A stretch of DNA of 64,000 nucleotides, from assembly GCA_017404935.1 (NCBI GenBank), contig JAFRBI010000002.1, forward strand, positions 1-64,000, read 5' to 3'. Made by a program: the position numbers and the translations under genes. Below, one piece after another: positions 8,692 to 22,440 of the stretch. The stretch comes from Candidatus Saccharimonadota bacterium (GTDB lineage: Bacteria; Patescibacteriota; Saccharimonadia; Saccharimonadales; Saccharimonadaceae). Numbering within the stretch: the stretch's first letter is position 1; every line of letters starts with the position of its first letter. The notes beneath the pieces were generated by a model. The model did no database searches. It had not been told where the DNA came from and saw nothing but the letters and a program-made list of their open reading frames with translations.

Positions 8692-10869
8692 ATGCTTAGG
8701 AAATTTTTCTATACTGTAGCTAATAGACCTAAGATGGCAACATTAGTGGTGCTGTTTGTTGTTGCGATAATAGAAGTAATTTTGTTTCCCGATAAATTTT
8801 TGATTTGTTTTGGCGTTACATTGGTTTTATTCGCTGCAGTAATATTGTTTTATAAACTTTTGGTTTGGTTTTTGAACTTACATTTTAGCGTCAAAAAATA
8901 TTTTATTAGCAAACCGATTCGTAAAGTAAGTGCAGTAGTGCCTAACTATAATTATGCAAAATATTTAAAAGAACGAGTGGAGTCAATTGTTTCGCAGACT
9001 TATCCGATTAGTGAATTGATTATTTTGGATGATGCGTCTTCCGATGGGAGTGTAAAAGCGATAAAAGATATTATGGCCGATTTAAAAATACGATATCCAA
9101 ATTTAAAGGTAAGATTTATTCCGAATCAGAAAAATAGTGGGAATGTGTTTAAACAATGGGAGAAAGGTTTTTCTGAGAGTGAAGGTGATTTTGTTTGGAT
9201 ATGCGAAGCGGATGATACTTGTAGTAAGTATTTTTTGAATACGGTAATGCGTTCATTTAATGATGATAAAGTAGTGCTATCTTATGCAGAGTCTCGAGCT
9301 ATTGATGAGAACGGGAGAGAGCTGATGCCAGATTTGCGTACTTGGGTTGATGAGTTCAAGACGAGGCATTGGGATAAGAGCTACGTGAATGATGGAAAAA
9401 AAGAATTAGCAAATTTTCTCTGCGTTAATAATACGATACCGAATGCTTCTGGAGTAGTGTTTAGGAAGATTAATTCCCCAATTGGCAAATATTTAAGAGA
9501 AGCTCAGAAATTTAGGTTGGTAGGGGATTGGTATTTTTATGCGAAATATTTGTTGAATGGAAAGATCGCATATCATAGTGAAGCATTGAATTATCGTAGA
9601 ATGCAAGATAGTAGCGTTACTTCAACAACAGATAAATACCAGCAATTTTTGGAAATCGAAGCGGTACAAAAGAATATAGGAAATGATGTAAAATTGAGCC
9701 TAGATGCAAAGAGAAAGATAAAAGAATATAGAAGAGTGGTGATGGCTAGTTTTGGTTTATCTGAAAAAGAATTGGATTATATGGCAATTCCGTTTGAAAA
9801 AATTCTTAAAAAGAGCAAGGTAAATGATAAAATACTCCTTAGTGTAATCGTGAGTGCTTATAATGCAGAAGAATATATCGATGCATGTCTTGAATCTGTA
9901 GAAGCGGCCTTACCAGAAAAGTCTGAAATACTTGTAGTGAACGATGGTTCTACTGACAGAACCCTTGAGATAATCAAGGAACATAAAAAGAAATGCCCCA
10001 GTATAAATTATTATACTAAGAAAAATGAAGGGCTGTCTTCAGTGAAGAACTTTGGCTTGTCTAGGGCCAGAGGTCGTTATGTGATTTTTATGGATGCCGA
10101 TGATAAGATCAAATCGGATGGATATTTGGTGATGTTAAAAATGGCGCTTGAAAATGATGCAGATGTGGTAGTTTGCGATATGGCATTAATTTATGATGAC
10201 GGGAGGGTGTACAATTTTCCAGTTTATCATGAAAAACCAGGTGGGCTTTTGGGTTTTTTGGTTGACGGGCTGATGGCGTCTTCTAACAACAAAATGGTGA
10301 AAAAAGTTTTGTATGATAAGGTGGGAAAATATCCCGAGGGGAAGAATAATGAAGACGTAGCGATCACGCCAGTTTTGATGGCTTTGTCTAAGGATACCCA
10401 ATATATCCCGAGCTCGTTCTATGAGTATTACCAGAGGGAAGGATCGATTCAGAATTCTGAATTTGATGAAAAACGATTAATGATTTTCGATACGGTGGAG
10501 CAAGCTTATTTGGCAATCCAAAAAATATTGCCAAAGGAGGCAGAAAGTATCTTTGGGATAATGGTAGGGAATCAACTGATTGCACTTTTGGTGCATGTGA
10601 TGTGTAATATCGAAGACATCAATAAGAGGAATAAATTTATTGGGGAATTTTGTGAAAAATATCGAGCTCTAAATATTTCTGACAATATTTATATTAAAAA
10701 ATACTGTGACGAACTTGGTCTTTTCGAATTACCACGATATATTTTAACGGCATCTCCTAAAAAGATTTATAAATATATTAAGGGTGACAATAAATTAGTT
10801 AATTTTTTGGATTATATTGGGCGAGCGTTTGGAATAAAGATGCTGGCAAAAAAACGCTCTACTAAATAA
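8692..10869 (+). CDS. Membrane-anchored tandem GT2 glycosyltransferase
   Basis: A 725-residue protein with two N-terminal membrane helices (residues ~15-65) followed by two GT2 domains. The first (~82-330) has AVVPNYNYAKYL, LDDASSDGS and WICEADDT; the second (~380-700) has VIVSAYNAEEYI, VNDGSTDRT and FMDADD. Domain 1 is closely related to the stand-alone GT2 at 16358, which shares PNYNYAKYL, QTYPI and the LDDAS motif, so duplication is likely. It follows the GT8/GT2 gene by 8 nt. It presumably acts at the inner membrane face on a lipid-linked glycan. Confidence 0.75.
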   Translation: MLRKFFYTVANRPKMATLVVLFVVAIIEVILFPDKFLICFGVTLVLFAAVILFYKLLVWFLNLHFSVKKYFISKPIRKVSAVVPNYNYAKYLKERVESIVSQTYPISELIILDDASSDGSVKAIKDIMADLKIRYPNLKVRFIPNQKNSGNVFKQWEKGFSESEGDFVWICEADDTCSKYFLNTVMRSFNDDKVVLSYAESRAIDENGRELMPDLRTWVDEFKTRHWDKSYVNDGKKELANFLCVNNTIPNASGVVFRKINSPIGKYLREAQKFRLVGDWYFYAKYLLNGKIAYHSEALNYRRMQDSSVTSTTDKYQQFLEIEAVQKNIGNDVKLSLDAKRKIKEYRRVVMASFGLSEKELDYMAIPFEKILKKSKVNDKILLSVIVSAYNAEEYIDACLESVEAALPEKSEILVVNDGSTDRTLEIIKEHKKKCPSINYYTKKNEGLSSVKNFGLSRARGRYVIFMDADDKIKSDGYLVMLKMALENDADVVVCDMALIYDDGRVYNFPVYHEKPGGLLGFLVDGLMASSNNKMVKKVLYDKVGKYPEGKNNEDVAITPVLMALSKDTQYIPSSFYEYYQREGSIQNSEFDEKRLMIFDTVEQAYLAIQKILPKEAESIFGIMVGNQLIALLVHVMCNIEDINKRNKFIGEFCEKYRALNISDNIYIKKYCDELGLFELPRYILTASPKKIYKYIKGDNKLVNFLDYIGRAFGIKMLAKKRSTK

Positions 10870-10881
10870 GATAGAATTTGG

Positions 10882-10887
10882 TAAAAT
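10882..10887 (+). promoter_or_regulatory. -10 box, leaderless start at 10894
   Basis: TAAAAT ends exactly 6 nt before the ATG. This spacing recurs at seven other genes in the window. The -35 region is weak. Confidence 0.45.
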
Positions 10888-10893
10888 ATAGGT

Positions 10894-13053
10894 ATGGGTT
10901 CAAAAGGTTTAATCGGTAAAGCAAAAAGGACTTTAACAGAAGAGGGGATTTCTTCGGTTGCTAAAAAGACGAAGAATTTTTTGATATATAGAGCTAAGAC
11001 TGGCTTTAAAAAAGAAGAAATGGTAGATATTCTGTTTATCAATGGTTGTGCTTTGTCTCATCCAGAGAGATATCGTGTGGATCATCAGATGGAGCAGTTG
11101 GAGGCAAATGGGCTTAGCGTAGACAAGGTTTTTTATACAGAGGTAAAACCAGAGATGTTAAGGCTTTGCCGGGCGGTGATAGTTTTTAGATGCCCAATTA
11201 CCGATGAGGTAAAAGAATTAATTGAAAAGGCGCACTATTTTAATAAGAGAGTGTTTTTCGATGTAGACGATTTGGTGATAGATACTAAATATACGGATAA
11301 AATTGAATATGTGCAACAAATGAACAAGACAGAAAAAACTACTTATGATGACGGCGTAGTAAGAATGGGTGAAACGATGAGGCTTTGTGATTTTTGTATC
11401 ACTACTACTCCGGCTTTGGCGCGAGAATTAAAAAAATATGATAAAGAAGTGTTCATAAATAAGAATGTAGCAAATGAGAGGATGGTAAAGCTTTCTCTTG
11501 ATGCAATTAAAAATATAAAGAAAGATGCGAGTAAAGTAAAAATTGGGTATCTTAGTGGAAGTATCACTCATAATCCAGATTTTGAGATGATAAAGCCGGC
11601 GCTTGTGAAGATTATGGATGAATTTGAGAACGTGGAATTAGTGGTGATGGGGCATTTGGATTTGCCAAAAGAGTTTGGGCGTTTTGAAAATAGAATCATT
11701 AGACAAACGTTCGGGGATTGGGGAAAGTTGCCAGCAATAATTGCTGAACTAGATATTAATTTGGCGCCAATTGAAGAGTCCATATTTAATGAAGCAAAAT
11801 CTGAGAATAAATGGACAGAAGCGGCATTGTGCAAAGTAGCAACTGTGGCTTCTGATTTTGGAGCGTTTAAGGATGTGATTTCTGATGGCGAAACGGGAGT
11901 TTTGTGTAAGAATGGTGAAGAATGGTATAAAAAATTAAAAATGTTGGTAGAAGACGATTTGCTTAGAAATAAAATTGGTGAAAATGCGCATAAGAAAGCA
12001 ATGAAGGAATATGTGACAACTTATTCTGGACGAGCACTTGCAAAATTTATCAAATCGAAATTAGCAAGGAGTATTGCTTTTGTATTGCCGTCTACTAATG
12101 TAAGTGGTGGAGTGAATGTGGTTTTGAAACACTGTGATATTTTGAGGCAAAATGGAGTGGATGCGATGGTGATTAATATGGACAATAGCGATAATAACAT
12201 AATGAATTCCGATGGCGAAGTAAATGTAGTGAGTGTAGAGAAACATGATATTTCTGCAAAATTTGACGGTATGGTAGCAACGCTTTATACTACAGTGAAA
12301 TTTATTAAAGAATACCCAGATGTAAAGCAAAAATATTATTTGGTGCAAAATTTCGAAACAGACTTTAATGAATATGGGTCAGTAACAAAGCGAGAAGCAA
12401 ACGCCACCTATACAGAGTCGGATGTAAGTTATATTACGATTTCTGAGTGGTGCAAAAAGTGGCTTTCTCAAGATTTTGGTCAAAAGGTAAAATATGCACC
12501 GAATGGAATTGATTTAGATAAATTTGAATTTAGAGAGAGAAAATTTAACAGTGGAAAAATTAAGATTTTGATTGAAGGAAATTCAGACGATTATTATAAA
12601 AATGTGGATGAAAGTTTTAAAATTGTGGAGAAATTAGATAGGAGCAAATACGAGATTGTTTATTTATCTTATCAGGGCGAACCAAAGAAGTGGTATAGAG
12701 TAGATAAATTTTATCATAAAGTGCCAAATGATGAGGTGGGGAAGATTTATTCTGAGTGCGATATATTGCTTAAAACTAGCATATTGGAAAGTTTTTCTTA
12801 CCCGCCGCTTGAAATGATGGCAACTGGTGGTTATGTAGTGGCCGTGCCAAATGAGGGGAATAAAGAGTATTTGAAAGATGGAGAAAACTGTCTGTTTTAT
12901 GAGCAGGGGAACATAGATGAGGCAGTAGAAAAAATTGAAAAAATTGCGAGTGACACCGAGCTCAGAAAAAAGTTAGTAGAGAATTCTAGAAAAATAGTGA
13001 CCGAGCGGGATTGGAAGAAGTTAGAAAAAGAGATTCTGGAGCTTTATAAGTGA
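10894..13053 (+). CDS. Tandem GT-B (GT4-like) glycosyltransferase
   Basis: A 719-residue protein with two GT-B parts. The first (~45-390) has HPERYRVDHQ, FDVDDLV, GYLSGSITHNP and a late EAALCK...SDGETGV donor-site segment. The second (~400-719) starts LPSTNVSGGVNVVLKH and has APNGIDLDKF and ILESFSYPPLEMMA, resembling WsaF-type rhamnosyltransferases. The first part is a paralogue of the next gene. Its stop overlaps the next start as GTGA. A role in extending a rhamnose-containing glycan would fit the rml genes downstream, but that is inference. Confidence 0.7.
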   Translation: MGSKGLIGKAKRTLTEEGISSVAKKTKNFLIYRAKTGFKKEEMVDILFINGCALSHPERYRVDHQMEQLEANGLSVDKVFYTEVKPEMLRLCRAVIVFRCPITDEVKELIEKAHYFNKRVFFDVDDLVIDTKYTDKIEYVQQMNKTEKTTYDDGVVRMGETMRLCDFCITTTPALARELKKYDKEVFINKNVANERMVKLSLDAIKNIKKDASKVKIGYLSGSITHNPDFEMIKPALVKIMDEFENVELVVMGHLDLPKEFGRFENRIIRQTFGDWGKLPAIIAELDINLAPIEESIFNEAKSENKWTEAALCKVATVASDFGAFKDVISDGETGVLCKNGEEWYKKLKMLVEDDLLRNKIGENAHKKAMKEYVTTYSGRALAKFIKSKLARSIAFVLPSTNVSGGVNVVLKHCDILRQNGVDAMVINMDNSDNNIMNSDGEVNVVSVEKHDISAKFDGMVATLYTTVKFIKEYPDVKQKYYLVQNFETDFNEYGSVTKREANATYTESDVSYITISEWCKKWLSQDFGQKVKYAPNGIDLDKFEFRERKFNSGKIKILIEGNSDDYYKNVDESFKIVEKLDRSKYEIVYLSYQGEPKKWYRVDKFYHKVPNDEVGKIYSECDILLKTSILESFSYPPLEMMATGGYVVAVPNEGNKEYLKDGENCLFYEQGNIDEAVEKIEKIASDTELRKKLVENSRKIVTERDWKKLEKEILELYK

Positions 13054-14099
13054 AGAAAGTATTATATATAGCAGAGAACGTTGAATCTGCACAATTTCGA
13101 TATCGGGTAAAAAATGTGGCAGAAGCGCTCCAGGATTCTAGCGACTGGTCGGCTAAGTGGGTTCTTAAATCTGATCTTGCCAATACGGATTTGTTGAATG
13201 TAGATTTGGTGGTAATTTTAAGACAGACAGAAAAAGATGGAATCTTGCTTGATTTTATTAAGAAGGTGCATCTTGCTGGGCTAAAGGTGTTGTTTGATTT
13301 AGATGACCTAGTTTTTGACTATAAAGATCTTCTGATTTTAATGAAAGGAACTAATAGCAAAAATATAGCTTATTGGGCTGGATATATATGGGGGATTAGA
13401 AGAATTGCTAAAAAAGCAGACGGTTTCATTACGACTAATGAATTTTTGGCAGGGAAACTTAAAAGAAGTTTTAATAAACCCTGTGGCGTGATTCCAAATT
13501 CTTTAAACTCGGAACAAATTAAGGTTGCAGATGAGAGCTTGGAAGACAAAAAGCATGGCGGGTTTGCAATAGGCTACTTTTCTGGTTCACCTACACACAC
13601 AAAAGATTTGAAATTAGTAGAACCGGAAATATTTAGATTTTTGGATGAGCATAAAGATGCGAAGTTGAGGATTGTGGGGTATATGGAACTATCTTCTGAA
13701 ATGCAAAGAAGAGTCAAGAATGGCCAGGTTGAGATTTGTGACTTGGTGGACTATCTGGAGCAAATAAAAATGATGTCGAAGGTGGATGTGAATATTGCGC
13801 CGTTAGTAATTTCTGAGTTTACAAATTGTAAATCTGAGCTGAAATTCTTTGAAGCGGCAGTGGTAGAAACTATAACAATTGCTTCTCCTACGTATGCTTT
13901 TAAAAAGGCAATTTCTGATGGTAAAAATGGATTTTTGGCACAGCCGGGTGAATGGTATGACAAGCTAGGATATCTTTATAATAATCCTTCTGAAAATCGT
14001 AAGATTGCCAAAGCTGCTAGAAAATATGCGTTAGAAAATCACTATGGAAAAAAGTTTGTAAAAGAGGTGGAAGAAGCATATAGATTTTTTTGTAACTAA
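13050..14099 (+). CDS. GT4-like glycosyltransferase
   Basis: A 349-residue GT-B enzyme. It shares a RYRV motif, FDLDDLVFD, GYFSGSPTHTKD and a late KFFEAA...SDGKNGF segment with the first half of the preceding protein. The GTG start overlaps the upstream TGA (13050-13053), so it is translated with that gene. It ends the plus-strand run; its last four bases overlap the 3' end of the oppositely oriented reverse transcriptase gene. Donor and acceptor sugars cannot be read from the sequence. Confidence 0.72.
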   Translation: MKKVLYIAENVESAQFRYRVKNVAEALQDSSDWSAKWVLKSDLANTDLLNVDLVVILRQTEKDGILLDFIKKVHLAGLKVLFDLDDLVFDYKDLLILMKGTNSKNIAYWAGYIWGIRRIAKKADGFITTNEFLAGKLKRSFNKPCGVIPNSLNSEQIKVADESLEDKKHGGFAIGYFSGSPTHTKDLKLVEPEIFRFLDEHKDAKLRIVGYMELSSEMQRRVKNGQVEICDLVDYLEQIKMMSKVDVNIAPLVISEFTNCKSELKFFEAAVVETITIASPTYAFKKAISDGKNGFLAQPGEWYDKLGYLYNNPSENRKIAKAARKYALENHYGKKFVKEVEEAYRFFCN

Positions 14100-15409
14100 T
14101 AGTTTTTAATTTTTTTATTGATTGCGCTCTCTCTTAAGATTTTTTTGGAGTGCCGTCTTATATGTAAGACTTGTTTTTGTATAGATAGATTGTTAATAAT
14201 TTTGCTACTTATTTTTTCATAAGTGTCAAGAGGATTTTTATTGATGGCGCCATCTACGTTGTGGCGTGTGCCATTAATTTTTTTAATTTTTCGGTAATGT
14301 TTTTCCACAGTGGGACTTCTCATTATTATTTTATTTAGGTTCATGTAAAATCCTAAATATTGCAAAAACTCTTTATTTTTAGTATATTTTTTTACAAATT
14401 TTTTGGTGATATCTATAAATATTTTTTTATTTGCTTCTATATAAAAAGCTTCTGTTTTGTTGGCCCCGATTTCCAATTTATATTTTTTTATCTCGTTCAA
14501 AATAAAAGCGTATATTTCTTTAGCGTATTCGTCTGGTATTGCCACTAGTATATCGTCACAGTAGCGTTTATAGATAGTTGGTTTAGGTAATTTAGCTAAT
14601 TTGTTGTTGATTGAATTATCAAAATCGTATAAATATATGTTTGAGAGTATGTCGCTAATAGGGGTTCCCTGAGGAATTCCGTATGCATTGTTATTTTTGT
14701 GTTCTAAGACTGTATTACGTATGAATCTATTATATTTTTTAGGATTGATCCAGCTGTTTTTGCCCATGACATATTCGACGTCTTTATAGAAGACATACTT
14801 ATATTTTGTGACTATCTTGATTATAAATTGCAGGTTGTTTTTTGGTAGATCTTCAGAAAATGGTTCAATAGCCTTACGAAGAACAGAATGATTGATACTG
14901 TCAAAAAAGCCTTTAATATCTATGCATAGAACAGTGTATCCATTTAGAGTTTGCAACGATTTAAATAAATCATTAGCAAAATTTATATTAGATTTATTCC
15001 TTTTGCTTTTTGCGGCAATTGGTATTTTTCTATATCCCAAAATAGAATCATTCAGTGTGGAATTTTTTAATTTATATTCGTAATTCTTTCTTAGGACGAA
15101 AGCATAAAAAGACATAATACAAGAATCTCTATGGGCTGGATACATGATAGATCTGTTTTTCTGTTTTATTTCTAGTTTGCCCTCTAGATCTTTCGAATAA
15201 CGTCTTTTTTTCTGATCAATTCGAATGAGTGGCCAAAATTTTAGGGAATTTAACTTATTTGAAAAATAAAGATCTTTTCTATATTTACCATTTATGGCAT
15301 AGTCAGATTTTGATACTTTGGAATCAAAATGTTTGTAGGAAGACTTTATACAACTTTTCTCTTTTGAATCCTGATTTTTTAACCATTCGTCAATTAGCTG
15401 GTCATTCAT
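14096..15409 (-). CDS. Reverse transcriptase of the DRT/unknown-group type (DRT2-like candidate)
   Basis: A 437-residue single-domain reverse transcriptase. Visible motifs: a KNRSIMYPAHRDS segment (~84-96); motif A CIDIKGFFD with Asp164; motif B GIPQGTPISD (~244-253); motif C YCDD at 283-286; motif D GANKTE (~315-320); and YLGF at 351-354. There is no maturase, endonuclease or integrase region. The motif B sequence is QG-type, unlike the SQ-type box of diversity-generating elements. Length, YCDD, and a long structured leader behind a perfect promoter match the layout of defence-associated RTs such as DRT2, which reverse-transcribe an upstream ncRNA. It lies antisense within a glycan locus and looks AT-richer and more Lys/Asn-rich than its neighbours, suggesting acquisition. 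Subfamily assignment is tentative. Confidence 0.8.
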   Translation of the reverse strand: MNDQLIDEWLKNQDSKEKSCIKSSYKHFDSKVSKSDYAINGKYRKDLYFSNKLNSLKFWPLIRIDQKKRRYSKDLEGKLEIKQKNRSIMYPAHRDSCIMSFYAFVLRKNYEYKLKNSTLNDSILGYRKIPIAAKSKRNKSNINFANDLFKSLQTLNGYTVLCIDIKGFFDSINHSVLRKAIEPFSEDLPKNNLQFIIKIVTKYKYVFYKDVEYVMGKNSWINPKKYNRFIRNTVLEHKNNNAYGIPQGTPISDILSNIYLYDFDNSINNKLAKLPKPTIYKRYCDDILVAIPDEYAKEIYAFILNEIKKYKLEIGANKTEAFYIEANKKIFIDITKKFVKKYTKNKEFLQYLGFYMNLNKIIMRSPTVEKHYRKIKKINGTRHNVDGAINKNPLDTYEKISSKIINNLSIQKQVLHIRRHSKKILRESAINKKIKNY

Positions 15410-15737
15410 ACTCTATTATCATGAAATTGGCAAGTCCTCACCAGCACCAGGTTGATAACGGTCTTGCCAATACTATGCGTATAGCACATTGCATCACTAC
15501 GGGGGTGCTTTTTCACATTATGAAATTTAAACTGTATAATAAACTTATGAAGTCTATTGTGTTCAAACTTCTCGAAAGTTTCTTGGAACATCTAATGGGC
15601 CGAGGCCCACATAATGATACAAGAATGAACCTTATCATCAATAATTATGTAATAATCATCAAAGAAAGGTATTGACCTTCGTATCCTATTAAAGTTCGAG
15701 CCCGATGCAATGACTCTCAACACCTCACGTTAAGGAT
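15410..15737 (-). ncRNA. Structured ~330-nt leader, candidate template/partner RNA of the RT
   Basis: The predicted transcript runs from about 15737 down to the RT start and is dense in hairpins. Stems (plus coordinates): 15666-15670/15675-15679; 15612-15619/15633-15640; 15596-15600/15605-15609 (TGGGC/GCCCA, CGAG loop); 15565-15570/15576-15581 extended by 15561-15564/15586-15589; 15483-15487/15505-15509; and 15427-15434/15463-15470 (TTGGCAAG/CTTGCCAA). No convincing protein precedes the RT, although a 61-codon frame (15591-15406) is open and ends in an ATGA overlap with the RT start. RNA ends and function are inferred. Confidence 0.6.
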
Positions 15738-15743
15738 AATTTA

Positions 15744-15771
15744 ATTATAACGTTTTTTAAATATTTGTCAA
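15744..15771 (-). promoter_or_regulatory. Perfect consensus promoter of the RT leader
   Basis: On the minus strand, TTGACA (15771-15766), a 16-bp spacer, and TATAAT (15749-15744). Both hexamers match the sigma-70 consensus fully. Predicted transcription start is about 15737, some 330 nt before the RT start codon. Confidence 0.8.
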
Positions 15772-15807
15772 TCATATTTTGGCGCAGACGTGATACGTAT
15801 AAGAACC

Positions 15808-15846
15808 TACCGTTTAAAATTGCTAAAATATTGATTTTAAACGGTA
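15808..15846. promoter_or_regulatory. 13-bp perfect inverted repeat between divergent promoters
   Basis: TACCGTTTAAAAT (15808-15820) and ATTTTAAACGGTA (15834-15846) are separated by 13 nt. It lies between the RT promoter and the toxin promoter, where an operator or an element end might be expected. It has no T-run, so a simple terminator is less likely. Confidence 0.5.
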
Positions 15847-15861
15847 AGTTTAGGCCGTCCT

Positions 15862-15889
15862 TTGATTTATATCTGTTTAGTGTTATAAT
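15862..15889 (+). promoter_or_regulatory. Promoter of the MazF-like gene
   Basis: TTGATT (15862-15867), 16-bp spacer, TATAAT (15884-15889), ending 7 nt before the ATG at 15897. This supports a leaderless mRNA and rules out a start further upstream. Confidence 0.65.
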
Positions 15890-15896
15890 ATTTTAT

Positions 15897-16283
15897 ATGC
15901 AGAAAGACTTTGATGGTTGGAATGAACTGAAAAAAGACTTGGATGATAGATCTGATTTTTTGCCAGTCAAGGAGGGGGAAGTCTGGTGGTGTTCAATTGG
16001 GATAAACGTAGGTGTTGAGACTTGTGGTAAAAACGAAAAGTATTCTAGACCGGTAGTGATTTTGAAAAAATTAAGTCAATTTGGATTTCTGGGAGTCCCG
16101 TTAACTTCACAAGAGCATACTGGGAGTTGGTATACAGAATTTGTATTCAAAGATAAAAAGCAATATGCCGTGTTGGCACAAGTTCGAGTTTTCAGTACCA
16201 ATAGATTGACTGATAGGATGGGGACACTTCCCCAATCAGATTTTGATAAGATAAAGGGGGGATTTTTGGAATTATATAAATAA
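15897..16283 (+). CDS. MazF/PemK-type toxin, solitary
   Basis: A 128-residue protein. After a short charged N-terminal segment it has the MazF core: EGEVWWCSIGINVG (where the family usually reads GDIWW), SRPVVILKK, a GVPLTS strand and AQVRVFSTNRL. MazF-type proteins are sequence-specific endoribonucleases that form type II toxin-antitoxin pairs. No antitoxin gene is visible on either side, which is odd. The divergent neighbour is the reverse transcriptase, so the two may form one accessory cassette. The ATG at 15897 is chosen because the -10 box lies just upstream; an in-frame upstream ATG at 15765 would place that box inside the gene. Confidence 0.75.
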   Translation: MQKDFDGWNELKKDLDDRSDFLPVKEGEVWWCSIGINVGVETCGKNEKYSRPVVILKKLSQFGFLGVPLTSQEHTGSWYTEFVFKDKKQYAVLAQVRVFSTNRLTDRMGTLPQSDFDKIKGGFLELYK

Positions 16284-16288
16284 ATACA

Positions 16289-16323
16289 CCCTGGCCGAAA
16301 GACCAGGGCAACGGGTATTCCCG
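16289..16323 (+). terminator. Hairpin pair after the toxin gene
   Basis: CCCTGG (16289-16294) pairs with CCAGGG (16303-16308), followed by CGGG/CCCG (16313-16316/16321-16324 region). There is no strong T-run, so termination is only probable. Confidence 0.4.
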
Positions 16324-16357
16324 AATATATTTCCATTATACCATATGGGTTTAAAAA

Positions 16358-17233
16358 ATGCAAGGAGAAAAAAGCATAAGAAGAAAAGCTAAAAAAGTTT
16401 CGGTAATCGTGCCGAATTATAATTATGCCAAATATTTGAGACGGCGAATTCTTTCAATTGGGCAGCAGACCTACCCGATTTATGAACTAATTGTGCTTGA
16501 TGATGCCTCAAAAGATGCCTCAAAAACCATAATCAAAAGAGCAGTGGCGGAAGCGTCTAGACTGAAACCAAACATGAAAATTAAATTGATTTGGAACAAA
16601 GAAAACTCTGGCAAAGCGATTTCGCAGTGGCTTAAAGGTGTGGAAGCGGCGACTGGAGATTATATTTGGATAGCAGAGGCAGATGACGTGGCTAGAAAAG
16701 ATTTCCTAAACGAAGTGATGCGTGGGTTTGAACAAGATGAAGATGTGGTGCTAGCCTACTCTGAGTCGGCTATCATTAATAAATATGGAATTTTGATGAT
16801 GCCGAATTTTCGCCATTCTAGAGATAAAGAGGGAACAGGACATTTTAGAAATAGCTATATTCGTTCAGGGAAAAAAGAAATTGAAGAGATTATGGCGATT
16901 AGGTGTACGATTCCAAATGTGTCTGCGGTGGTTTTTAAAAATACGCCGGAATTTTGCAAATATTTAAAACAGGCAGAAAAGTTTAAACAGGTAGGGGATT
17001 GGTATCTTTATACAAAACTACTTGAAGGCGGCAAAATCTTTTACAACAAAAAGTCTTTAAATCTCTTTAGGGTGCATGGTGGTAGCGCAACCAATCGTGG
17101 AAAAGACCATGTAAGAGAAGTGGAAAGAATGCATGAGTATTTTAGGAATAACTACGATTTAACTCAAGAAAGGCTTGGTTTTATGGGGGTGGAACTTGAG
17201 CGAATCAAGCAGAAATATGGTATAATTAAATAA
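16358..17233 (+). CDS. GT2 glycosyltransferase
   Basis: A 291-residue cytoplasmic GT2 enzyme with SVIVPNYNYAKYL near residue 15, LDDASKDAS, and IWIAEADDVA carrying the DxD-type metal site. It is a near relative of the first GT2 domain of the 725-residue protein at 8692, but lacks membrane helices. It follows the RT/toxin cassette and leads into the rml genes; a TATAAT near its 3' end (17221) probably starts the rml transcript. Its own start has no clear ribosome binding site. Confidence 0.75.
   Translation: MQGEKSIRRKAKKVSVIVPNYNYAKYLRRRILSIGQQTYPIYELIVLDDASKDASKTIIKRAVAEASRLKPNMKIKLIWNKENSGKAISQWLKGVEAATGDYIWIAEADDVARKDFLNEVMRGFEQDEDVVLAYSESAIINKYGILMMPNFRHSRDKEGTGHFRNSYIRSGKKEIEEIMAIRCTIPNVSAVVFKNTPEFCKYLKQAEKFKQVGDWYLYTKLLEGGKIFYNKKSLNLFRVHGGSATNRGKDHVREVERMHEYFRNNYDLTQERLGFMGVELERIKQKYGIIK
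17221..17226 (+). promoter_or_regulatory. -10 box of the rml operon
   Basis: TATAAT overlaps the last codons of the GT2 gene, 25 nt before rmlA. A TTGAGC at 17196-17201 is 19 bp away, so the -35 is poor. GGAG at 17240-17243 serves as ribosome binding site. Confidence 0.4.
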
Positions 17234-17251
17234 ATAATTGGAGTTATTTTA

Positions 17252-18136
17252 ATGAAGGGAATTATCCTCGCTGGTGGTTCTGGCACCCGGCTATATCCAT
17301 TAACACTTGGCACCTCTAAGCAGATGTTACCGGTTTATGATAAACCGATGATTTATTATCCTTTAACTACTTTGATGATTGCGGGAATCCGGGATATTTT
17401 GATTATTTCCACACCTGAGGATTTGCCTAATTTTGAGAGACTCCTTGGGGATGGTTCTAGTATGGGGATCAACCTTTCTTATAAGGTACAGCCTTCTCCA
17501 GATGGTTTGGCACAGGCATTTATCTTAGGTTCTGAATTTATCGCTGGTGGGCCGTGCGCAATGATTCTTGGTGATAATATTTTCTATGGCTCTGGATTTA
17601 CGGATACACTTAGAGCTGCGGTAGACAATGCTAATAATGGTAGAGCTACGGTATTTGGTTATTATGTAAATGATCCAGAAAGATTTGGTGTGGTAGAATT
17701 TGACTCTGATTGGCATGCAATCTCAATTGAAGAAAAACCAGAAGTGCCAAAAAGCAACTATGCAGTGACAGGACTTTATTTCTATCCAGGTGATGTGTCT
17801 AACCGAGCAAGCCAGGTAGTGCCATCTGATAGAGGTGAACTGGAAATTACTTCTCTGAATGAAATGTATTTAAAAGACGGACTTCTAGACGTGCAACTTT
17901 TGTCGCGTGGATTTGCTTGGCTTGATACTGGCACGGTGGATTCTCTTGCTGATGCGGCCGATTTTGTAAGAGTGGTGCAAAATAGACAAGGGATTCAGAT
18001 TGCTGCGCCAGAAGAGATTGCTTTTAAGCATGGCTGGATTTCAGAAGAAAAACTTTTAGAGGCGGCCAATAAATATAAAAAGACTGCCTATGGCAAACAT
18101 CTTTTCAAGGTAGCGGAAAGGAAACTTTACGACTAA
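17252..18136 (+). CDS. rmlA: Glucose-1-phosphate thymidylyltransferase
   Basis: A 294-residue enzyme opening with [18 protein letters not shown] and [17 protein letters not shown], a textbook RmlA/RfbA N terminus, and later LGDNIFYG. It makes dTDP-glucose from dTTP and glucose 1-phosphate, the first step toward dTDP-L-rhamnose. Length is normal. The stop overlaps rmlC as TAATG (18134-18138). The four rml genes follow one another without gaps and form one operon in the order A-C-B-D. Confidence 0.95.
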
Positions 18137-18690
18137 TGGGAAAATTCAAATTTAATGCAACCAATATTGAAGGTGTTTATGTGATTGAACCAACCGTGTA
18201 TGGCGATGAACGCGGATATTTTATGGAGACCTATTCGGAAGAAGAGTTTAAAGAAGCGGGTCTTGATTATGATTTTGTACAGGACAACCAGTCTTCTTCT
18301 AGAAAAGGGGTTCTTCGAGGTCTTCATTTTCAAAAGAATCATCCACAAGCCAAACTTGTGAGAGTGCTTTCTGGTGAAGTGTTTGATGTGGCGGTGGACC
18401 TTCGTGAAAATTCCGACACTTACGGTAAGTGGGTCGGGGTGCTTTTATCTGCTGATAATAAGAAACAGCTAATGATTCCACGCGGTTTTGCGCATGGATT
18501 TTTGGTGGTATCAGATACTGCAGAGTTTGCTTATAAATGTGATGATGTTTATCATCCAGAAGACGAGGGTGGTGTGATGTACAATTCTTGTGGGATTGAT
18601 TGGCCAGAAATTGACGTAGAGCCGGTTTTGTCGGAAAAAGACATGAAACATCCTGCGCTTTCAGAATTAGATTTTAAATTTAAATTTTAA
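18136..18690 (+). CDS. rmlC: dTDP-4-dehydrorhamnose 3,5-epimerase
   Basis: A 184-residue cupin-type epimerase. It has VYGDERGYFMETY, QDNQSSSRKGVLRGLHFQ with the catalytic His region, VFDVAVDLR and PRGFAHGFLV. It converts dTDP-4-keto-6-deoxyglucose to dTDP-4-keto-rhamnose in the cytoplasm. The start overlaps the rmlA stop by one base. rmlB follows after 10 nt and has its own strong ribosome binding site. Confidence 0.95.
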   Translation: MGKFKFNATNIEGVYVIEPTVYGDERGYFMETYSEEEFKEAGLDYDFVQDNQSSSRKGVLRGLHFQKNHPQAKLVRVLSGEVFDVAVDLRENSDTYGKWVGVLLSADNKKQLMIPRGFAHGFLVVSDTAEFAYKCDDVYHPEDEGGVMYNSCGIDWPEIDVEPVLSEKDMKHPALSELDFKFKF

Positions 18691-18700
18691 GGAGGTAAAA

Positions 18701-19741
18701 GTGGAAGACAAAAAGACAATTATTGTAACAGGTGGGGCTGGGTTTATCGGCTCAAACTTTGTGTATTATATGTTGAAAAAATATCCGTTTTATCGGATCG
18801 TGTGTTTGGACGCTCTTACTTATGCGGGGAACCTTTCTACGCTTGAAAGAGCGATGAAAGACCATCCAGATAATTTCCGGTTTGTAAAAGGTGACATTCG
18901 TGACGCGGAATTAGTTGAGAATCTATTTGTGGAAGAAAAACCAGATATTGTAGTGAACTTTGCGGCAGAATCACATGTAGATAGATCAATTCTAAACCCA
19001 CAAGAATTTTTGCAAACCAATATTATGGGTCCACAGGTATTGATGGATGCTTGCCGCAAACACGGCGTAAAAAGATATCACCAGGTATCTACGGACGAAG
19101 TATATGGTGATCTTCCTTTGGACCGGCCAGATTTATTCTTTACCGAAACTACGAATTTGCATGCTTCTTCACCATATTCGGCTTCTAAGGCTTCGGCGGA
19201 TCTTGTGGTGATGGCATACCATAGAACTTATGGACTGCCAGTATCTATTTCTAGGTGTTCAAACAACTACGGGCCGTATCATTTTCCAGAAAAGTTAATT
19301 CCTCTCATGATTATTAATGCGCTCAATGATAAACCTTTGCCGGTGTATGGTGATGGACTAAATGTGCGTGATTGGCTCTATGTGGAAGACCATTGTAAAG
19401 CGATTGATATGATAATTCATAGCGACTGTGTGGGTGAAGTGTATAACGTAGGCGGCCATAATGAAAAATCTAATATTGAAATTGTAAAATTAATTTTGAA
19501 AGAGCTCGGTAAACCAGAAAGCTTAATCACATATGTTGAGGATAGAAAAGGACATGACCGGCGCTATGCAATTGACCCTGCGAAAATTCAAAGAGAACTG
19601 GGTTGGGAACCAGAAACAAAATTTGAAAATGGCATCGTCAAAACCATTCAATGGTATCTAGACCACAAAGATTGGTGGGAAGAGATTATTTCTGGCGAAT
19701 ACCAGGATTATTATGATAAGATGTACGGAGAAAAGAAATGA
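18701..19741 (+). CDS. rmlB: dTDP-glucose 4,6-dehydratase
   Basis: A 346-residue extended SDR with TGGAGFIGSNFV, the FAAESHVDRSI segment diagnostic for RmlB, STDEVYGDL, and YSASKAS with the catalytic YxxxK. It converts dTDP-glucose to dTDP-4-keto-6-deoxyglucose. The start is GTG; AAGGAGGT at 18689-18696 sets it. Its TGA overlaps the rmlD ATG (19738-19741). Confidence 0.95.
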   Translation: MEDKKTIIVTGGAGFIGSNFVYYMLKKYPFYRIVCLDALTYAGNLSTLERAMKDHPDNFRFVKGDIRDAELVENLFVEEKPDIVVNFAAESHVDRSILNPQEFLQTNIMGPQVLMDACRKHGVKRYHQVSTDEVYGDLPLDRPDLFFTETTNLHASSPYSASKASADLVVMAYHRTYGLPVSISRCSNNYGPYHFPEKLIPLMIINALNDKPLPVYGDGLNVRDWLYVEDHCKAIDMIIHSDCVGEVYNVGGHNEKSNIEIVKLILKELGKPESLITYVEDRKGHDRRYAIDPAKIQRELGWEPETKFENGIVKTIQWYLDHKDWWEEIISGEYQDYYDKMYGEKK

Positions 19742-20634
19742 AAGTATTGGTAACGGGAACTTCTGGCCAACTAGGCCATGATGTGATGATGGAGCTTGCC
19801 TCTCGTGGACACGAGGGAATTGGCGCGGATAGATCAGATTCTGATGCAGAGTTTGAGCACGTGATTTTGGATATTACGGATGCCAAAAAAGTATCTGAAG
19901 TGGTGAACGGAATAAAGCCAGACGCGATTGTACACTGCGCAGCTTGGACAAATGTGGATGGGGCAGAAGATCCAGATAATCGTGACAAAGTAATGGCAGT
20001 GAACGTAGAGGGGACTCGTAATTTAGCCGAGGCAGCAAAGGCCGTGGATGCTAAGTTTATGTATATTTCTACGGATTATGTATTCAATGGACAGGGAGAA
20101 AGACCGTGGCAGCCAGACGACAAGGATTACGCTCCACTCAATGTATACGGGGAGTCTAAATTAAACGGGGAATTAGAAGTTTCTAAAATTCTAGACAAAT
20201 ATTTTATCGTAAGAATTGCGTGGGTGTTTGGTAAAAATGGCAATAATTTTATTAAGACGATGATTAAGGTTGGGGAAACTCACGACACTGTAGAAGTGGT
20301 GGCAGACCAAATTGGTACGCCAACCTATACATTAGATCTTGCAAGGCTTCTGGTGGATATAATTGAAACTGATAAATATGGATATTATCATGCCACTAAT
20401 GAAGGCGGATATATTTCTTGGGCCGATTTTGCCGAGGAAATTTATAAAGATGCTGGGATGGATGTGAAGGTCGTAGCGGTTTCTACAGAAGATTATGAGA
20501 AAAAAGCTGGTAAAACTGTAGCAAAAAGGCCGTTTAACTCTAGACTTGATAAGTCTAAACTGGTTGAGGCTGGCTTTGAACCATTGCCAACTTGGCAGGA
20601 TGCGGTGGAGAGATATATTTCAGAGTTGATTTGA
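19738..20634 (+). CDS. rmlD: dTDP-4-dehydrorhamnose reductase
   Basis: A 298-residue SDR with VLVTGTSGQLGHDVM, HCAAWTNVDGAED, STDYVFNG and YGESKLNGE, typical of RmlD, which reduces the last intermediate to dTDP-L-rhamnose. It ends the rml operon. Its 3' end overlaps the convergent GT2 gene by 15 bp, and no terminator is visible between them. Confidence 0.95.
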   Translation: MKVLVTGTSGQLGHDVMMELASRGHEGIGADRSDSDAEFEHVILDITDAKKVSEVVNGIKPDAIVHCAAWTNVDGAEDPDNRDKVMAVNVEGTRNLAEAAKAVDAKFMYISTDYVFNGQGERPWQPDDKDYAPLNVYGESKLNGELEVSKILDKYFIVRIAWVFGKNGNNFIKTMIKVGETHDTVEVVADQIGTPTYTLDLARLLVDIIETDKYGYYHATNEGGYISWADFAEEIYKDAGMDVKVVAVSTEDYEKKAGKTVAKRPFNSRLDKSKLVEAGFEPLPTWQDAVERYISELI

Positions 20635-21432
20635 CTTTTCGCTTTTTTGGTAGAATTTAGTGAGTAATTTTGCGATTGGTGTAGGCCAAAAGCGTTTGAA
20701 AATTTGATAATCTTCTTTGGTGCGGATACCTTGATTGATAATGTCGGTAGTGGTGGAATTCTTTGAGATGCGATGTCCCATGAGAGGTTGGTGAATATAA
20801 GTAAAAGCACCTTTCTCTTTGCTGAGTTTTTCCCAAGCATGCCAATCACAGTTGCACTTAAAACTTGATTTAAAAATATCTTTAGGGCAGTTTTTAACTA
20901 CAAAAGTGACAGCGGGGCAACAGACGGGATTGCCAAATTTAAGGATGGAGCGTTTAAAGTGACGAGATTTGAGGGATTTTTTGATGCGGATACTGGTTAA
21001 AAGTAGATGCTTTATTTTTAATAGTGTATTAGAATAGACACGCTCTTTGTCACGAAGTTCAAAATAGTCCGTAAAAATAATGGATGAATCTGGGTATTTC
21101 TTATAGGCTTTTACTATTTTTTCAGAATAATTTTTTTCATAAACATCGTCTTGGTGAGCTACGGTTATAAGTGGGGTGTTCCCAGAATGTATAGCAAAGT
21201 CAAAATCACCACCAATATTCGTATGTTCGCCTTCAATCACTTTGAGATTATATATTTTGGCTAAATTTGATATATAGGAATTCTTGGTCGTAGTGGCGAC
21301 AATAACTTCACTAGAATAGGACTGATTTTTGACGGATTTAATACAGTCCTCTAGAAAAGAACTTTCTTTATAAGCTAGGATTACAAAGGTGTGAAGAGAA
21401 TTATTTTTGTTTTTCATTGTTCTTTTTGTCAT
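20620..21432 (-). CDS. GT2-like glycosyltransferase
   Basis: A 270-residue protein, last in the minus-strand operon 28159-20620. It has a GT2-type fold signature, FVILAYKESSFLEDCIKSV, and VAHQDDVYEKNY in place of the usual DxD segment. Paired Cys residues occur in the C-terminal part (NPVCCPAV). Starts at 21432 or 21417 are both possible; either overlaps the DUF2304 gene. The substrate is unknown. Confidence 0.68.
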   Translation of the reverse strand: MTKRTMKNKNNSLHTFVILAYKESSFLEDCIKSVKNQSYSSEVIVATTTKNSYISNLAKIYNLKVIEGEHTNIGGDFDFAIHSGNTPLITVAHQDDVYEKNYSEKIVKAYKKYPDSSIIFTDYFELRDKERVYSNTLLKIKHLLLTSIRIKKSLKSRHFKRSILKFGNPVCCPAVTFVVKNCPKDIFKSSFKCNCDWHAWEKLSKEKGAFTYIHQPLMGHRISKNSTTTDIINQGIRTKEDYQIFKRFWPTPIAKLLTKFYQKSEKSNQL

Positions 21433-21751
21433 GTTTTAAAATTGATACTTCTTGAATTAGTTTAGTGATTTTGTTTTGTTGACGACTGAGGATAATAGTG
21501 AGAAAGAAACAAATGAGAATGAGGATAGCAATAACCACTAAGAAAATAAAATTAGATAGAGTTTCAAAGCCAAGCCAATGAGCAAAAGATTCTAGGGGGC
21601 CGGGAAAAATAGCGATGATAATAAAAGCTATTGGGAGTAGAAGCCAAGTGATAGAGCTTCGAATGGACAAACTATTTTTGGCGAGTCCAATTATAATAAT
21701 AAGAAATAATATAATAGCGGCGACTGTCATTTCAATTTGAAGACTGGTCAT
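21401..21751 (-). CDS. Small membrane protein, DUF2304-like
   Basis: A 116-residue protein with three predicted membrane helices (~10-27, 35-52, 64-88) and a charged C-terminal tail. This layout, and its place directly after a DPM1-type GT2 gene (ATGA overlap at 21748-21751), fit the DUF2304 family, which commonly accompanies polyprenyl-phosphate glycosyltransferases. The exact role is unknown; support of the adjacent transferase at the membrane is a guess from context. Confidence 0.6.
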   Translation of the reverse strand: MTSLQIEMTVAAIILFLIIIIGLAKNSLSIRSSITWLLLPIAFIIIAIFPGPLESFAHWLGFETLSNFIFLVVIAILILICFFLTIILSRQQNKITKLIQEVSILKHDKKNNEKQK

Positions 21752-22440
21752 TTTTTGATCCTCCTAATTTTAATTATAAAAATTGATATTAAAACATTTA
21801 TAACATAGTAGGCGCTTTTCCAAGAGTGGATACTAGATTTTCCAGCTTGGCGTTCATGCATCCTGGCGGGGACTTCTATGATTTTATATCCAAGCTTAAC
21901 TAATTCAAAATCGGATATAGGTTCTGGATATTCTTTCGGATAATGATTTGCAAAATATTTTATCACCTCTTTATTCGCGGCGCGGAAACCGGAAGTTGTA
22001 TCATAAATGCGTTTTCTAGAAAATACAAAAATCATATTTGATATTAAACGAATACCAACTCTTCTTAAGAAGGACGATTTAAAGTTATTAGAATTTTTTC
22101 TGATAAATCTTGAGCCAATAGTGAAATCTGTTTCACCGTCAATAATTGGCTTTATCAGGTCTTTTATAGATTCGGCATCGTGTTGGCCGTCGGCATCAAG
22201 CTGAATAGCAATGTCATAATTATTTTTATAAGCATATTTATATCCAGTTTGAACGGCACCACCAATGCCGAGATTATAACATAAATCAAGATGGTTATAA
22301 TTATTCTCCTCCAAAATTTGTTTAGTATGATCGGTAGAACCATCATTGATAACTATATAGTCATAATTCTTAATAGAATTGATGGTTTTTTCTATAGACG
22401 CCTCCTCGTTGTGAGCGGGAATAATTAGTAGTATTTTCAT
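21748..22440 (-). CDS. Polyprenyl-phosphate sugar transferase, GT2/DPM1-like
   Basis: A 230-residue enzyme with LLIIPAHNEEASIE, VINDGSTDHT and QLDADGQHD (residues ~80-88), typical of DPM1/GtrB-like GT2 enzymes that transfer a sugar to polyprenyl phosphate. A hydrophobic C terminus (~205-225) can anchor it. It overlaps glf upstream and the DUF2304 gene downstream by ATGA junctions. With gtrA-like and DUF2142 genes in the same operon, it likely supplies a lipid-linked sugar for transfer outside the membrane. Confidence 0.8.
   Translation of the reverse strand: MKILLIIPAHNEEASIEKTINSIKNYDYIVINDGSTDHTKQILEENNYNHLDLCYNLGIGGAVQTGYKYAYKNNYDIAIQLDADGQHDAESIKDLIKPIIDGETDFTIGSRFIRKNSNNFKSSFLRRVGIRLISNMIFVFSRKRIYDTTSGFRAANKEVIKYFANHYPKEYPEPISDFELVKLGYKIIEVPARMHERQAGKSSIHSWKSAYYVINVLISIFIIKIRRIKK

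What the first reader, a model, noticed from the sequence alone, without database searches (positions are those of the whole stretch)
15406..15594. Stop-free frame in the RT leader that could encode a neo-like concatemer product
On the RT strand, the frame from the ATG at 15591 to 15409 has 61 codons without a stop and ends in an ATGA overlap with the RT start. The opposite strand also has a stop-free frame across 15229-15675. In DRT2, rolling-circle copying of the ncRNA creates an endless open reading frame. A repeat of a length divisible by three inside this segment would do the same here. The alternative is a small translationally coupled protein.
Basis: inference. Interest (0 to 1): 0.7.

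Follow-up and report, generated by a model that had tools for sequence, protein, structure and literature searches.

The report
Stop-containing neo gene in Saccharibacterial DRT2
The DNA in front of this reverse transcriptase encodes the RNA template of a DRT2-type anti-phage system; tandem copying of that template should create a hidden gene on the opposite strand from the one suspected, and unlike in all its close relatives that gene carries a conserved stop codon instead of being endless.

Summary
The frame is real: 61 codons, ATG 15591, ATGA overlap with the RT. It is not special: close relatives carry stops in it. In DRT2 the neo gene is antisense to the ncRNA, so the strand to examine is +, not -.

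The RT (14096-15409, -) is Drt2-like (PADLOC E 6e-82; PDB 9c0i E 7e-34). It is below NCBIfam's Drt2 cut-off. The leader is a structured ncRNA with a perfect sigma-70 promoter. It is shared with relatives, with compensatory base changes.

On + lie TATAAT (15535-15540), ATG 6 nt later (15547) and TTGACC (15672-15677). Copying with a jump from TTGAC to the TTCAC site (15512-15516) would join them as TTGACC-17-TATAAT. One rule, a jump right after TTGAC in the 17-nt register, gives an endless ORF divisible by three in all five comparable relatives (147, 129, 171, 162, 162 nt). In the window and its sister L120 it gives 160 nt. A 42-codon ORF then ends at the same TGA inside TTGAC.

Verdict: a divergent DRT2 system in Saccharibacteria. 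A concatemer-dependent gene is likely, but as a derived, stop-containing neo. Whether discrete small proteins are made, +1 frameshifting restores an endless protein, or another register is used is untested.

The parts
14096..15409 (-). Drt2-like reverse transcriptase, 437 aa, GIPQG and YCDD motifs
15744..15771 (-). promoter of the ncRNA and RT: TTGACA-16-TATAAT, 12 of 12 matches
   Evidence: position conserved in L120
15410..15737 (-). predicted ncRNA (ends inferred): 5' handle, template, 3' scaffold
   Evidence: fold z -3.98; compensatory pairs in the three-sequence alignment
15704..15712 (-). left arm of the basal stem enclosing the template (RNA CAUUGCAUC)
   Evidence: paired in all or most sequences, several pairs with both sides changed
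15487..15495 (-). right arm of the basal stem (RNA GAUGCAAUG)
15426..15471 (-). 3' scaffold hairpin (AUUGGCAA...UUGCCAAU), shared with L120, L014, L015
   Evidence: the four sequences built the model; no other DRT2 leader tested matches
15517..15676 (+). predicted repeat unit (template copy), 160 nt
   Evidence: clade-wide jump rule
15512..15516 (+). 3' jump site TTCAC, exactly 23 nt 5' of the -10; same in L120, L132, L017 (ATCAC in L014)
15672..15677 (+). TTGACC: end of the template copy and -35 box after the jump
15535..15540 (+). TATAAT -10 box of the junction promoter
15547..15675 (+). 42-codon antisense ORF (neo homologue) starting at the predicted transcription start and ending at TGA 15673-15675 inside the -35 box; same length and stop in L120

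Best explanation
The leader is the ncRNA of a divergent DRT2 (UG2-type) phage-defence system. The RT binds the 3' scaffold and copies a template region of about 160 nt. The nascent cDNA end (TTGAC) jumps back to the TTCAC site at the other end of the template, giving tandem repeats. Each junction creates a sigma-70 promoter (TTGACC-17-TATAAT) on the strand antisense to the ncRNA. The ATG lies 6 nt after the -10, at the predicted +1, so the mRNA would start without a leader. In five relatives the resulting frame is endless (neo). In this genome and its sister L120 the frame ends after 42 codons at a TGA within TTGAC, so the concatemer would express a discrete 42-aa neo-like protein per unit. 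A second in-frame ATG just after the junction (SD-like AGG, TGA, then ATG) could allow re-initiation to a slightly longer form. Shown: the sequence anatomy, the conservation, the RT affiliation. Inferred: RNA ends, jump point, transcription, translation, toxicity, defence.
For: RT: PADLOC Drt2 E 6e-82, NCBIfam Drt2 best hit, PDB 9c0i KpnDRT2 E 7e-34 and top structural match (modest model), nested inside Drt2-like RTs in the tree. ncRNA: perfect promoter, fold z -3.98, 21 pairs with both-side changes. Positive control: 42 of 96 Drt2 leaders have a 17-nt junction promoter with an in-frame endless unit on the antisense strand, against 4 on the sense strand and a mean of 2.7 in shuffles. Clade rule: a jump right after TTGAC in the 17-nt register gives endless units in L014 147, L015 129, L017 171, L132 162 and L133 162; shifting by one nt either way breaks all five at that TTGAC site. 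The window and L120 give 160 with the same TGA. They are sisters nested within the endless lineages (100/100), so the stop looks derived. RT dN 0.30 against dS 3.2 (saturated) indicates a maintained RT.
Against: NCBIfam's Drt2 cut-off (390 bits) is not met (260). Homology between the two jump sites is weak here (TT.AC), compared with 6 nt in L014. Only two stop-bearing sequences are known. Codon-level constraint on the 42 codons is weak: substitutions 12/8/10 by codon position, P = 0.025 for open and this similar. An alternative 120-nt endless register exists in both, though such a register appears in 31% of codon shuffles. In KpnDRT2 stop codons abolish defence (PMC12039810), so a stop could mean the effector is broken. 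No expression data.
Confidence: 0.6

Rival explanations
1. Endless neo by +1 frameshifting: ribosomes slip +1 at the UGA-C, so that a 160-nt unit is decoded as 53 codons plus one skipped base and the protein is endless as in relatives.
For: 160 = 3x53+1, and the frame after the slip is open across the junction into the ATG frame in both window and L120; UGA followed by C with AGG upstream (sequence).
Against: The slip codon UAU has poor re-pairing in +1. The pattern is also what a single ancestral 1-nt insertion would leave. Only two sequences.
Confidence: 0.1
2. Endless neo in a different register: a 120-nt unit (15519-15638) with CAT/ACAT jump repeats and -35 TTATCA (window) or TTAACA (L120), as long as the KpnDRT2 repeat.
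For: Open and in frame in both sequences with 17-nt spacing and a 3-4 nt direct repeat.
Against: Such a register appears in 31% of codon-column shuffles; the -35 is poor in the window (4 of 6); it abandons the TTGAC site used by all five relatives.
Confidence: 0.12
3. Decayed effector: an ancestral 1-nt insertion broke neo in the window/L120 lineage, and the RT and ncRNA persist for another reason or are on the way out.
For: Length off by one from a multiple of three and one in-frame stop; weak codon constraint on the ORF.
Against: RT intact and constrained in both, promoter boxes, start codon and RNA pairs preserved since a divergence that left the RTs 59% identical.
Confidence: 0.13
4. Sense-strand small protein translationally coupled to the RT (15591-15409, -).
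For: 61-codon frame with ATGA overlap.
Against: Stops in L120 and no matching frame in L014 or L015; no family match; overlaps structured RNA.
Confidence: 0.02

Closest known systems
KpnDRT2 (Klebsiella pneumoniae DRT2; PMC12039810, PMC11100668)
   Same: Single RT gene with an upstream ncRNA; RT sequence and best fold match (9c0i); template within the ncRNA; split -35 and -10 boxes that a repeat junction would join at 17 nt; antisense neo frame in close relatives of the window.
   Different: RT about 30% identical; template about 160 nt instead of 120; jump sites TTGAC/TTCAC rather than ACA motifs; start codon at the predicted +1 instead of behind a ribosome-binding site; a stop codon in the unit, whereas Kpn neo has none and dies from one.
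DRT2-like systems of Saccharibacteria and kin (L014, L015, L017, L132, L133)
   Same: Same RT clade, same jump rule, same -10 to ATG layout in most; L014 and L015 share the scaffold hairpin.
   Different: Endless units divisible by three; the window and L120 have 160-nt units with TGA.
DRT9 and DRT10 (PMC12483538, PMC12632851)
   Same: ncRNA-associated defence RTs; DRT10 makes tandem-repeat DNA (abstract).
   Different: The window's RT matches Drt2 far better than Drt9 (E 6e-82 against 1.9e-13); DRT9 makes homopolymers, and neither product is described as a neo gene in the abstracts read.

Membership tests
DRT2 | Drt2 RT sequence | tested here: inconclusive
   Best family in PADLOC and NCBIfam and best PDB chain, but 260 bits against the NCBIfam cut-off of 390
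DRT2 | RT active site YCDD and no extra domains | tested here: met
   YCDD at residues 283-286, RVT_1 only apart from a sub-threshold TetR match, 437 aa
DRT2 | upstream structured ncRNA sharing the RT promoter | tested here: met
DRT2 | ncRNA belongs to the known DRT2 ncRNA family, with pseudoknot | tested here: inconclusive
   No Rfam match; the scaffold model finds only its own four members; pseudoknot not testable here
DRT2 | ACA-1/ACA-2 motifs at the template ends | tested here: not met
   TTGAC/TTCAC sites instead; relatives use ACTTAC or CATA
DRT2 | promoter formed across the repeat junction, 17-nt spacing | tested here: met
   TTGACC-17-TATAAT under the clade rule
DRT2 | repeat length divisible by three with a stop-free frame (neo) | tested here: not met
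   160 nt, TGA in frame, in window and L120; met in five relatives
DRT2 | phage-triggered concatemeric dsDNA and growth arrest | not testable with these tools
   needs cDNA sequencing and expression

The most novel reading that the evidence does not exclude
A DRT2 lineage in which rolling-circle reverse transcription builds an array of discrete, stop-terminated small genes, each with its own junction promoter and leaderless start, instead of one endless gene. This would show that DRT2 defence does not require a never-ending protein.
Probability: 0.45. Interest if true: 0.75.

Novelty: new variant of a known kind. Interest (0 to 1): 0.6.

Why it matters
In KpnDRT2 a stop codon in neo abolishes defence, and repeat number sets toxicity. 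A natural lineage with a conserved stop in each unit would test whether endlessness is essential or only one way to deliver the toxin. The clade also extends neo-type gene synthesis to host-dependent Saccharibacteria. It gives a different jump motif (TTGAC to TTCAC) and a start codon at the transcription start, which should help to annotate divergent DRT2 systems whose neo genes were hard to predict (PMC11100668).

Tried and rejected
Sense-frame small protein: stops in relatives. Genetic recoding of TGA: 13 of 44 long window ORFs end in TGA. Assembly error as the cause of the stop: the independent genome L120 has the same unit length and stop. A jump by exact direct repeat of 3 nt or more at TTGAC in the window: none found at 17-nt spacing. 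A 162-nt register with TTAAA repeats: spacing 19 and no open frame. A 120-nt register: possible but at chance level. Direct scans with the window RT alone in genome and viral collections found nothing; the alignment scan was needed. The leader has no similarity in phage records. A DNA pattern scan of viral contigs gave six hits, which I take for chance matches to its 16 fixed bases; they were not examined. The L014 locus reappeared as L121, and L015 as L131, so each was counted once.

Full report
Observation. The 61-codon frame 15591-15406 on the - strand, its ATGA overlap with the RT start, and the + strand stop-free frame 15229-15675 are all present. The sense frame is not unusual for this composition, and the antisense run is mildly so. 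The sense frame carries TAG and TAA in L120, and L014 and L015 have no matching frame.

The reverse transcriptase. The 437-aa RT is Drt2-like by PADLOC (E 6e-82) and NCBIfam (best hit, but below its cut-off). Its best PDB chain is the KpnDRT2 RT 9c0i, which is also the top fold match of a modest model. The genome has 740 kb in 11 contigs. Of 174 genomes of the genus, two others carry a close relative: L120 (59% identity) and L121/L014 (47%). The tree places window and L120 as sisters, then L014, then L015, all with support 100, inside a wider group of Drt2-like RTs from Patescibacteria.

The leader. A 12-of-12 sigma-70 promoter lies at 15771-15744 (-). The RNA folds with z -3.98. An alignment with L120 and L014 shows a basal stem around the template and a 3' hairpin, with 21 pairs across the whole structure that kept pairing through changes on both sides. 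A model of the 3' scaffold recovers its own four members and nothing above chance elsewhere, so this scaffold is specific to the clade.

Which strand. In KpnDRT2 the neo gene is antisense to the ncRNA, the promoter forms only across a repeat junction with 17-nt spacing, and the units are multiples of three (PMC12039810). A scan for that layout in 96 Drt2 leaders found it on the antisense strand in 42, on the sense strand in 4, and in 2.7 shuffled leaders on average. The search method therefore works on this family.

The window's unit. On the + strand lie TATAAT 15535-15540, ATG 15547 and TTGACC 15672-15677. A pentamer TTCAC lies exactly 23 nt upstream of the -10 in the window, L120, L132 and L017; L014 has ATCAC. 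A jump right after TTGAC to that position joins the boxes at 17 nt. Applied unchanged, this rule gives endless frames in L014 (147 nt), L015 (129), L017 (171), L132 (162) and L133 (162). Moving the register by one nt either way puts a stop into each of them at that TTGAC site. L015 also has a second downstream TTGAC that gives an endless 147-nt unit at 16-nt spacing. In the window and L120 the rule gives 160 nt and a 42-codon ORF (MKSIVFKLLESFLEHLMGRGPHNDTRMNLIINNYVIIIKERY; L120 MKSIILKLLERFLKHSLDRGPSGFSRINLNISNYIVITKERY). Both end at the same TGA inside TTGAC. L120 is a separate genome, so an assembly error is unlikely. The rule was settled after looking at these loci, so the five relatives are not a blind test; the independent control is the scan.

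Interpretation. The stop lies on the branch leading to the window and L120, nested within endless lineages, so it is probably derived. The RT has stayed intact and constrained since (dS is saturated). The simplest reading is a concatemer-dependent gene that now encodes a discrete small protein per repeat. In most of the clade the ATG begins 6-7 nt after the -10, which puts it at the predicted transcription start (leaderless, inferred). After the junction both window and L120 have an in-frame ATG close behind the TGA, with AGG upstream. This could allow re-initiation, but the AGG is also part of a clade-conserved RNA stretch, so that reading is weak.

Limits. There are only two stop-bearing sequences. 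Protein-level constraint on the 42 codons is weak. A 120-nt endless register exists in both, at a frequency expected by chance. A +1 frameshift at UGA-C would also give an endless product, because 160 = 3x53+1. All functional steps are inferred from KpnDRT2; no cDNA, RNA or protein data exist here.

Noticed in passing
window 15897-16283 (+): PemK/MazF-like toxin gene (Pfam PF02452), divergent from the RT leader, with no antitoxin gene seen next to it.
   Followed up: no
L006 1063-2232 and L007 967-2199 (G000 contigs C9 and C8): Two further RTs in the same genome with an IVIGNLTSQLLSN motif, each preceded by a small ORF; they look like diversity-generating retroelements (motif recalled, not tested).
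   Followed up: no
window 8692-22440: The RT sits among glycosyltransferase and dTDP-sugar type genes, while L120 has different neighbours, so the system has probably moved horizontally.
   Followed up: no
L015 / L131: Record titled Nomurabacteria, but the same RT and leader are found in G829 of the window's own family; the record name may be wrong.
   Followed up: partly
L014 antisense of 2157-2480: Six-nt direct repeat ACTTAC bounds a 147-nt unit with a 17-nt junction promoter and an endless frame, the clearest neo candidate of the clade.
   Followed up: yes
L018-L101, L119: About half of the divergent Drt2 leaders fetched carry a predicted endless unit with jump repeats other than TGT (for example AACG, TTG, CTGT, ATCAAC), suggesting varied jump motifs in DRT2.
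   Followed up: partly
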